Positions 45,744-46,618 of a DNA stretch of 64,000 nucleotides are shown piece after piece. Source of the DNA: Pararhodobacter sp. (GTDB lineage: Bacteria > Pseudomonadota > Alphaproteobacteria > Rhodobacterales > Rhodobacteraceae); assembly GCA_020832545.1 (NCBI GenBank), contig JAFIEK010000008.1, positions 62,001 through 126,000 of the forward strand, given 5' to 3'. Both the position numbers and the translations under genes were made by a program. The notes beneath the pieces are model-generated. The model was not told the DNA's origin. It worked only from the letters and a program-made list of their open reading frames with translations, and did not search any database. How positions within the stretch are numbered: the stretch's first letter is position 1; each line of letters opens with the position of its first letter.

Positions 45744-45771
45744 TTGACTCTGCTGACGGCTGGCGTATAAG
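45744..45771 (+). promoter_or_regulatory. Strong promoter of rpsD
   Basis: TTGACT (45744-45749) and TATAAG (45766-45771) with a 16-bp spacer make one of the best sigma-70-like promoters in the window. A start near 45778 would give a leader of about 220 nt before the rpsD ATG. Confidence 0.7.
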
Positions 45772-45779
45772 CCGCCCGT

Positions 45780-45803
45780 CCCGGGTGCACGCCCGGGGCT
45801 TTT
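45780..45803 (+). terminator. Attenuator-like hairpin at the start of the rpsD leader
   Basis: CCCGGG and CCCGGG (self-complementary) around TGCACG form a 6-bp stem followed by GGCTTTTC. It begins only a few bases after the predicted transcription start, so it could be a stabilising 5' hairpin or an attenuator rather than a terminator of an earlier gene. Confidence 0.45.
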
Positions 45804-45814
45804 CATTGGTGTTG

Positions 45815-45902
45815 GTGGACCCCGCAAGGGGAAGCCTGTCGCCGGGGTAACCCGGAAAGGACAACGCCCTTCTGTCCCGCCTTGGCCGGGACCGGAGTCC
45901 AC
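45815..45902 (+). promoter_or_regulatory. Predicted multibranched RNA structure in the rpsD leader
   Basis: GTGGAC (45815-45820) pairs with GTCCAC (45897-45902) and encloses three hairpins: CCC-GCAA-GGG (45821-45830), CCGGG-GTAA-CCCGG (45842-45855), and GTCCCG with CGGGAC (45874-45879 and 45887-45892). Two loops are GNRA tetraloops. GGAC at 45859-45862 could also pair with GTCC at 45874-45877, giving an alternative fold. Ribosomal protein S4 represses its own synthesis through leader RNA in other bacteria, so this may be an S4-binding autoregulatory element. That role is inferred from position and fold only. Confidence 0.55.
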
Positions 45903-45925: not shown

Positions 45926-45965
45926 GATCCGAGACCCGAAAAGTGGGAGCCGGTTTTCGGGTAAG
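45926..45965 (+). repeat. CCCGAAAA / TTTTCGGG palindromic element
   Basis: CCCGAAAA (45935-45942) and TTTTCGGG (45954-45961) flank GTGGGAGCCGG. Elements with AAAAGTGGG...CCGGTTTTCGG are widely scattered in alphaproteobacterial intergenic regions. Here it lies just before the rpsD ribosome binding site. Confidence 0.6.
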
Positions 45966-45997
45966 TCGAGGACGAATACAATAGAAGGAGATCAGCG

Positions 45998-46618
45998 ATG
46001 ACCAAACGCACCGCTGCCAAGTACAAGCTCGACCGCCGCATGGGCGAAAACATCTGGGGCCGCGCCAAATCGCCGGTGAACCGCCGCGAATACGGCCCCG
46101 GCCAGCACGGCCAGCGCCGCAAGCAGAAGCTGTCGGATTTCGGCACCCAGCTGCGCGCCAAGCAGAAGCTGAAGGGTTACTACGGTGACCTGACCGAGAA
46201 GCAGTTCAAGCGCATTTACGCCGAAGCCGCCCGCGTCAAGGGTGACACCGGCGAGAACCTTGTGGGTCTGCTGGAGCGCCGCCTGGACGCGGTCATCTAC
46301 CGCGCCAAGTTCGTGCCCACCATTTTCGCCGCCCGCCAGTTCGTCAACCACGGCCATATCACCGTCAACGGTGGCCGGGTGAACATCGCCTCGTACCGTG
46401 TCAAGGAAGGCGATGTGATCGCCGTGCGCGACCGCTCGAAGCAACTGGCGATCGTGCTGGAATCGGTTGGCCTGACAGAACGTGATGTGCCCGATTATAT
46501 CGACGTTGATCACTCCAAACTGACCGCGACCTATGTGCGCACGCCGTCGCTGGCGGATGTGCCCTATGCGGTTCAGATGGAACCCAACCTCGTTGTCGAA
46601 TATTACGCCAAGAACTGA
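45998..46618 (+). CDS. rpsD: 30S ribosomal protein S4
   Basis: S4 is a primary 16S rRNA-binding protein that nucleates 30S assembly and contributes to decoding fidelity. The 206-residue protein has the N-terminal [15 protein letters not shown], the S4 domain around 95-155 ([33 protein letters not shown]), and ends VEYYAKN. The N-terminus has no cysteine zinc finger. An AAGGAG site lies 8 bases before the ATG. It stands alone, outside the alpha operon, with its own promoter and leader. Confidence 0.98.

What the first reader, a model, noticed from the sequence alone, without database searches (positions are those of the whole stretch)
45815..45902. Multibranched RNA with two GNRA loops in the rpsD leader
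A closing stem GTGGAC/GTCCAC encloses three hairpins, two with GNRA tetraloops (GCAA, GTAA). It sits in a leader of about 220 nt behind a strong promoter. S4 autoregulates through leader RNA in E. coli and Bacillus, but those leaders have different structures. This could be an alphaproteobacterial S4-binding element that mimics the S4 site on 16S rRNA.
Basis: partly seen in the sequence, partly recalled or inferred. Interest (0 to 1): 0.6.

Follow-up and report, generated by a model that had tools for sequence, protein, structure and literature searches.

The report
Ribosomal protein S4 mRNA leader switch
The messenger RNA for ribosomal protein S4 in the Rhodobacter group begins with a conserved folded RNA that can hide its own ribosome-binding site, very probably so that surplus S4 protein can shut off its own production.

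Summary
A conserved structured RNA leader lies upstream of rpsD (S4), but not in the shape first described. The element is window 45808-45872 plus the Shine-Dalgarno stretch 45984-45987: a three-way junction (P1 GGUGUUG/CAACGCC; P2 with an almost invariant GNRA loop; a variable hairpin P3b between invariant UGUC and nearly invariant ARAGGA), followed by a helix P4 that pairs CUUC with the GAAG of the Shine-Dalgarno sequence.

In the GTDB family 234 of 248 genomes have exactly one match and 240 have rpsD; 104 of 105 compared matches lie directly upstream of rpsD. Compensatory change is strong; folding energy alone shows nothing. Most likely this is an S4 autoregulatory leader acting on translation. 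Rfam 15 has no match, and my literature searches found no alphaproteobacterial S4 leader. Sequence mimicry of 16S rRNA is not supported. By-product: a second, different rpsD leader in 98 of 385 sampled genomes of the class. S4 binding and regulation are inferred, not shown.

The parts
45744..45771 (+). promoter-like TTGACT (45744-45749), 16-nt spacer, TATAAG (45766-45771)
   Evidence: read from sequence; a loose promoter pattern precedes 112 of 154 leaders, 45 of them 3-7 nt and 66 of them 23-43 nt from the motif; 0-2 of 182 in shuffled controls
45778..45799 (+). 5' hairpin followed by a U run, at the predicted transcript start; only in leaders with the longer promoter spacing
   Evidence: terminator-like site (2 found, 1.7 expected); role unknown
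45808..45814 (+). P1, 5' strand GGUGUUG
   Evidence: pairs with 45862-45868; 23 both-sided events that keep the pairing against 7 that break it
45815..45836 (+). joining strand GU, P2a GG/CC (45817-45818 with 45835-45836), P2b CCCC/GGGG (45820-45823 with 45828-45831), GCAA loop (45824-45827)
   Evidence: P2b: 4 of 4 pairs E<0.05 under a tree-aware null. P2a: 3 both-sided events, 2 to unpaired, not significant; 100% paired
45835..45841 (+). CCUGUCG, joining strand, UGUC invariant
   Evidence: invariant in A1 and A4
45842..45855 (+). P3b hairpin CCGGG-GUAA-CCCGG, variable in sequence, length and loop
   Evidence: 4 of 4 pairs tested E<0.05; 134 both-sided events, 53 to unpaired
45856..45861 (+). 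AAAGGA, joining strand; AGGA invariant in A1 and A4
45862..45868 (+). P1, 3' strand CAACGCC
   Evidence: as P1 5' strand
45869..45872 (+). P4, 5' strand CUUC (anti-Shine-Dalgarno)
   Evidence: 20 both-sided events against 4 that break the pairing; 2 of 4 pairs E<0.05
   Evidence: palindrome in 21 of 134 leaders, 20 of them among the 23 with long loops; one copy in the own genome at up to 3 mismatches; weak Rfam BASRCI408 match 45933-45967, E 0.0057, 19.2 bits against gathering 398
45984..45987 (+). P4, 3' strand GAAG, start of the Shine-Dalgarno sequence AAGGAG (45985-45990)
45998..46618 (+). rpsD, 30S ribosomal protein S4
   Evidence: NCBIfam NF003717 and TIGR01017 above cut-off

Best explanation
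The rpsD mRNA starts with an autoregulatory ribosomal-protein leader. A compact three-way junction (P1, P2, P3b) with conserved joining strands (GNGG, CCUGUCR, ARAGGA) is the likely S4 binding site. Directly 3' of P1 the strand CUUC pairs with the GAAG of the Shine-Dalgarno sequence (P4). When S4 exceeds free 16S rRNA it binds and stabilises the junction; P4, next to P1, then closes and ribosomes cannot start on rpsD. Shown by comparison: the element, helices P1, P2b, P3b and P4, its position at rpsD, and the Shine-Dalgarno pairing. Inferred: that the ligand is S4, that binding represses, and that translation initiation is the controlled step.
For: 234 of 248 family genomes have exactly one match and the 8 without detected rpsD have none; 104 of 105 compared matches directly upstream of rpsD. 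RNAalifold, given no structure, finds the same helices including CCUUC/GAAGG. 97.7% of cells paired, 11 of 22 pairs with double changes, 0 of 500 shuffles as high on the covariation score; with divergent leaders 95.8% and 15 of 17. Tree-aware null: P1 2 of 7, P2b 4 of 4, P3b 4 of 4, P4 2 of 4 pairs at E<0.05. P4 strand combinations change together: CUUC/GAAG 92, CUUU/AAAG 12, UUUC/GAAA 9 of 123. rpsD is followed by hisC, so S4 is the natural ligand; S4 is an established leader ligand elsewhere (PMC7247131, sections 7 and 10).
Against: No binding, transcript or expression data. Folding energy does not exceed shuffles (mean z -0.37, 93 leaders), and minimum-energy folds hold P1 in only 51 and P4 in 70 of 123. 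Some unpaired column pairs pass the tree-aware test, because certain clades change P1 and P4 together, so part of the P1 and P4 signal may be clade-linked. Both-sided changes also fail to keep pairs at times (53 events to unpaired in P3b, 12 in P2b). No sequence resemblance to the 16S site. One family genome with rpsD, G571, shows no element.
Confidence: 0.8

Rival explanations
1. The RNA is a real cis-regulator of rpsD but senses something other than S4, such as another ribosomal protein, a metabolite, an sRNA or temperature.
For: Ligand never tested; PMC7247131 (section 7) warns that a leader upstream of a ribosomal-protein gene need not bind that protein. No rRNA-like sequence.
Against: Matches lie upstream of rpsD, a gene whose product is an established leader ligand in other phyla, and no other ribosomal-protein gene follows here.
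Confidence: 0.13
2. The leader works by transcription attenuation or by RNA stability, and the Shine-Dalgarno pairing is secondary.
For: A terminator-like hairpin with a U run lies at 45778-45799.
Against: That hairpin precedes the conserved element and lies at the predicted transcript start; no terminator-like site was listed on the + strand between 45872 and rpsD (which found no more sites than shuffles). P4 with the Shine-Dalgarno sequence covaries.
Confidence: 0.05
3. The conservation is of DNA or of promoter and ribosome-binding sequence, with no functional RNA fold.
For: Much of the core is invariant, and folding energies are ordinary.
Against: Double compensatory changes in P1, P2b, P3b and P4, with shuffle, slide and tree-aware controls.
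Confidence: 0.02

Closest known systems
Firmicutes (Bacillus subtilis) rpsD leader
   Same: Free-standing rpsD; S4 represses its own translation from an untranslated leader, without a pseudoknot (PMC10931766, passage)
   Different: Conserved GUAA that mimics rRNA there (PMC7247131, section 10); here GUAA is in 2 of 134 P3b loops and 3 of 134 P2 loops. The structures were not aligned here
E. coli alpha-operon S4 leader (Alpha_RBS, RF00140; accession recalled)
   Same: S4 leader acting on translation
   Different: Pseudoknot and entrapment there (PMC10931766, passage, and recalled); no Rfam match at gathering threshold in the window
Predicted S4 leaders of Bacteroidia, Clostridia, Flavobacteria and Fusobacteriales (Eckert and Weinberg 2020)
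   Same: Predicted from conservation upstream of rpsD or its operon
   Different: Other lineages and gene contexts; the motif drawings were not available to me, so structures were not compared. Alphaproteobacteria has no S4 entry in their Table 1
Second alphaproteobacterial rpsD leader found here (type II, model R3)
   Same: Directly upstream of rpsD in 32 of 33 genomes compared by eye; order GNGG-[hairpin]-CCYGYC-[hairpin] as in GNGG-[P2]-CCUGUC-[P3b]; CCCGYC after GNGG in 18 of 27 against a shuffled mean of 2.85, maximum 9 of 300 shuffles
   Different: Closed by UCCCGR/YCGGGA instead of P1; third strand CUA instead of ARAGGA; none in the 5 family members sampled

Membership tests
Ribosomal-protein leader (r-leader), S4 type | Consistently upstream of the ribosomal-protein gene | tested here: met
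   104 of 105 compared matches; 234 of 240 family genomes with rpsD
Ribosomal-protein leader (r-leader), S4 type | Conserved RNA structure with compensatory changes | tested here: met
Ribosomal-protein leader (r-leader), S4 type | Lies in the transcribed 5' leader | tested here: inconclusive
   promoter-like sites at fixed distances; no transcript data
Ribosomal-protein leader (r-leader), S4 type | Means to control expression | tested here: met
   P4 covers part of the Shine-Dalgarno sequence and covaries; only the possibility is shown
Ribosomal-protein leader (r-leader), S4 type | Binds S4 and represses with excess S4 | not testable with these tools
   needs experiment
Firmicutes S4 leader | Conserved GUAA that mimics rRNA | tested here: not met
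   GUAA in 2 of 134 P3b loops and 3 of 134 P2 loops
E. coli Alpha_RBS and other Rfam 15 families | Covariance-model score at gathering threshold | tested here: not met
   0 matches in the window; none to this element in 15 related loci; best at E up to 10 is BASRCI408 in the P4 loop
Mimic of the S4 site on 16S rRNA | Conserved leader nucleotides shared with the S4 site | tested here: not met
   12 strings searched in E. coli 16S, only AGAGGA once at nt 298; sequence only, structural likeness not tested

The most novel reading that the evidence does not exclude
Alphaproteobacteria have at least two architectures of S4 leader, type I in the Rhodobacter group and a few other families, type II in many other lineages. 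Both descend from one S4-binding core (GNGG-[hairpin]-CCYGYC-[hairpin]) that arose when rpsD left the alpha operon, with the closing helix and third strand rebuilt later. That would be a traceable case of one RNA-protein contact moving between RNA scaffolds.
Probability: 0.25. Interest if true: 0.72.

Novelty: new variant of a known kind. Interest (0 to 1): 0.6.

Why it matters
S4 starts assembly of the small ribosomal subunit and is feedback-controlled in the best-studied bacteria (recalled). In alphaproteobacteria rpsD stands apart from the alpha operon, and a 2024 review calls the reason for such diversity an open question (PMC10931766, passage). This leader offers a concrete, covariation-backed control element for the Rhodobacter family, with a precise Shine-Dalgarno-blocking helix to mutate. 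With the second leader type it would make S4 a good case for how different or rebuilt RNAs come to bind one protein.

Tried and rejected
The UGUC/GACA pairing in the window's minimum-energy fold is broken in variants that read GGAAAGC (by eye). That the palindrome in the P4 loop is a dispersed repeat here: one copy in the genome. The two weak R1 matches outside the family lie, by my reading of L116 and L117, in coding sequence far from rpsD. Of the 22 genomes matched by R2 at E up to 0.1, 5 are family and 3 (G080, G032, G093) are directly upstream of rpsD; 7 more have rpsD elsewhere (compared by eye) and 7 are unknown. R2 missed G166, whose leader (L143) is nearly that of G032, so its sensitivity is limited.

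Literature: searches turned up no alphaproteobacterial S4 leader in their listings. Preprints and most subscription journals are not held, and supplements could not be opened. PMC7247131: outline, sections 7, 9, 10 and passages; PMC2704228, PMC2864571, PMC10931766: passages; other papers: listings only.

Rows dropped before counts: one search located 97 leaders, L079 without a parsed loop and one (L102) a chance match; 82 distinct ones had loops up to 75 nt, and A1 used 76 of these (left out: L102 and five others, L017, L023, L041, L046, L070); 14 with longer loops were not used in A1. One search kept 148 of 182 upstream sequences (the rest had no core or under 5 of 7 P1 pairs), 135 distinct; L136 then dropped as spurious (134), L121 from tree work (short gene; 133). 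The parser chose the best P1 pairing and so leans towards P1; A1 and A4 are plain MAFFT. A3 used 36 of 53 listed sequences; A4 dropped L102, L153, L074, L141 (P1 misaligned) and L169. A2 used 27 of 30 pattern hits (left out L203, L228, L241). Of 129 class genomes with rpsD, upstream DNA was fetched for most, not all; part of the print was cut.

Full report
What was checked. The window is part of a 4.37-Mb genome (G000:C66:62001-126000). Among the named loci fetched, its S4 is closest to Gemmobacter megaterium (91%), so it belongs to the Rhodobacter group. The gene at 45998-46618 is rpsD.

What relatives show. Upstream DNA of rpsD from the named loci and relatives gave 110 sequences, the window counted besides its own copy L001. 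98 hold a match to TTGGTGTTGGTGG with at most 3 changes (one, L102, by chance), among them 77 of the 80 named loci. Of the other three, L072 is cut by the contig end and L074 and L075 have divergent versions. The conserved text is TTGGTGTTGGTGG-CCCC-GCAA-GGGG-NNN-CCTGTCG-[variable hairpin]-ARAGGACAACGCCCTTC-[loop]-GAAGGAGATCAG-start.

Structure. On 76 leaders (A1) RNAalifold, given no structure, finds P1, P2b, P3b, a 3-pair CCU/AGG and the pairing of CCUUC with GAAGG. For the structure I named: 97.7% of cells paired, 11 of 22 pairs with changes on both sides, covariation score 0.232 against 0.075 in shuffles (0 of 500 as high) and at most 0.110 when partners are slid by 1-3 columns; one measure, further pair types, is reached by 31 of 500 shuffles. 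With 31 leaders including very divergent ones (A4) and GG/CC instead of CCU/AGG, 95.8% of cells are paired and 15 of 17 pairs have double changes. A null that evolves columns independently along a tree of the rpsD genes (133 tips, 60 simulations) gives E<0.05 for 2 of 7 P1 pairs, 4 of 4 P2b, 4 of 4 P3b and 2 of 4 P4; none for P2a or P3a. Some unpaired column pairs pass as well, because certain clades change P1 and P4 together. Events on the tree (both sides changed and paired / one side changed and paired / to unpaired): P1 23/24/7, P2a 3/1/2, P2b 37/6/12, P3a 0/4/0, P3b 134/21/53, P4 20/6/4. Energy is no guide: mean z -0.37 over 93 leaders; minimum-energy folds contain P1 in 51 and P4 in 70 of 123.

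P4 is the functional clue. Its 3' strand is the start of the Shine-Dalgarno sequence. Across 123 leaders the two strands read CUUC/GAAG in 92, CUUU/AAAG in 12, UUUC/GAAA in 9, and rarer forms. The divergent leaders L102, L143, L153 and L074 carry longer versions, for example GUUCCUC with GAGGAAC in L153 (by eye).

Distribution. Model R1 hits 234 of 248 genomes of the family (209 of 215 good-quality ones), once each. rpsD is found in 240 of the same 248, and the 8 without detected rpsD all lack the element. Of the 6 with rpsD but no hit, three genes sit at contig ends (L127, L131, L132), two have divergent versions by eye (L128, L129) and one, G571, shows none. For 105 genomes taken from the two capped position lists, 104 hits lie directly upstream of rpsD; in G461 hit and gene are on different contigs. 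In 385 genomes across the class R1 finds the 5 family members of the sample and two weak matches in coding sequence. The broader model R2 adds three hits upstream of rpsD in other families (G080, G032, G093; E 6e-4 to 2e-3). Of its 14 other genomes (E up to 0.1), 7 have rpsD elsewhere and 7 are unknown (one search compared by eye).

Leader ends. A loose promoter pattern (TTGAY, 16-20 nt, YWHMWN) precedes 112 of 154 leaders: 45 at 3-7 nt and 66 at 23-43 nt from the motif, one elsewhere; shuffled upstreams give 0-2 of 182. So the element probably begins the mRNA, with or without a short 5' hairpin; the window has the hairpin (45778-45799). The stretch from P4 to the start codon is 17-74 nt in 111 leaders and 98-135 nt in 23; the window has the long form.

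Mechanism. Shown: a conserved RNA structure, placed at rpsD, that includes part of the ribosome-binding site. Inferred: S4 binds the junction and favours the closed P4. The next gene in the window is hisC, so S4 is the only ribosomal protein of the unit here, and S4 is an established leader ligand elsewhere (PMC7247131, section 10). The joining strands GNGG, CCUGUCR and ARAGGA are the likely contact.

Known or not. Rfam 15: no match in the window. At E up to 10 the best is BASRCI408 in the P4 loop, E 0.0057, far below its gathering score. No match to this element in 15 related loci. Eckert and Weinberg 2020 list new S4 leaders for Bacteroidia, Clostridia, Flavobacteria and Fusobacteriales besides the older Gammaproteobacteria and Firmicutes ones, none for Alphaproteobacteria (PMC7247131, Table 1 and section 10). 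A 2024 review says that rpsD is placed apart in alpha-proteobacteria and, in the passages seen, names no leader there (PMC10931766). GUAA mimicry and 16S string sharing were tested and not met.

A second leader. Upstream of rpsD in many other alphaproteobacteria there is another conserved element: UCCCGR-GAAYGYGG-[hairpin]-CCCGYC-[hairpin]-CUA-YCGGGA-CA. In 27 sequences its closing stem changes on both sides in 4 of 6 pairs; the inner hairpins align poorly and were not tested. Model R3 hits 98 of 385 class genomes and none of the 5 family members. Of 33 hit genomes whose rpsD position is, 32 hits lie directly upstream and one (G058, E 0.008) does not (by eye; most of the 27 training sequences are among them). 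It shares the order GNGG-[hairpin]-CCYGYC-[hairpin] with the window's element; CCCGYC after GNGG is in 18 of 27 against 2.85 in shuffles, though only 9 of those 18 close the hairpin with 3 or more further pairs. Whether the two are related is open.

Verdict. A real, well-conserved cis-regulatory RNA, very probably the S4 autoregulatory leader of the Rhodobacter group, and a new structural class of a known kind.

Noticed in passing
L106, L107, L110, L152, L154, L156 and 21 of the loci L191-L262 (upstream of rpsD in other alphaproteobacteria): A second conserved rpsD leader (type II) of different architecture: 98 of 385 class genomes match model R3, no Rfam match in the 8 such loci scanned. It deserves a study of its own.
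   Followed up: partly
45937-45960 (P4 loop 45873-45983): Palindrome CGAAAAGTGGGANCCGGTTTTCGG is single copy in this genome yet occurs in the same loop of 21 of 134 rpsD leaders, 20 of the 23 with long loops. Its weak Rfam match is a Brucella sRNA. Why it is kept there is unexplained.
   Followed up: partly
45778-45799: GC-rich hairpin with a following U run at the predicted transcript start, looking like a terminator placed before the leader element; leaders come with about 5 or about 30 nt between promoter and motif.
   Followed up: partly
L095 1160-1249 (- strand): A TPP riboswitch (RF00059) about 150 nt before the rpsD leader, on the other strand, in genome G018.
   Followed up: no
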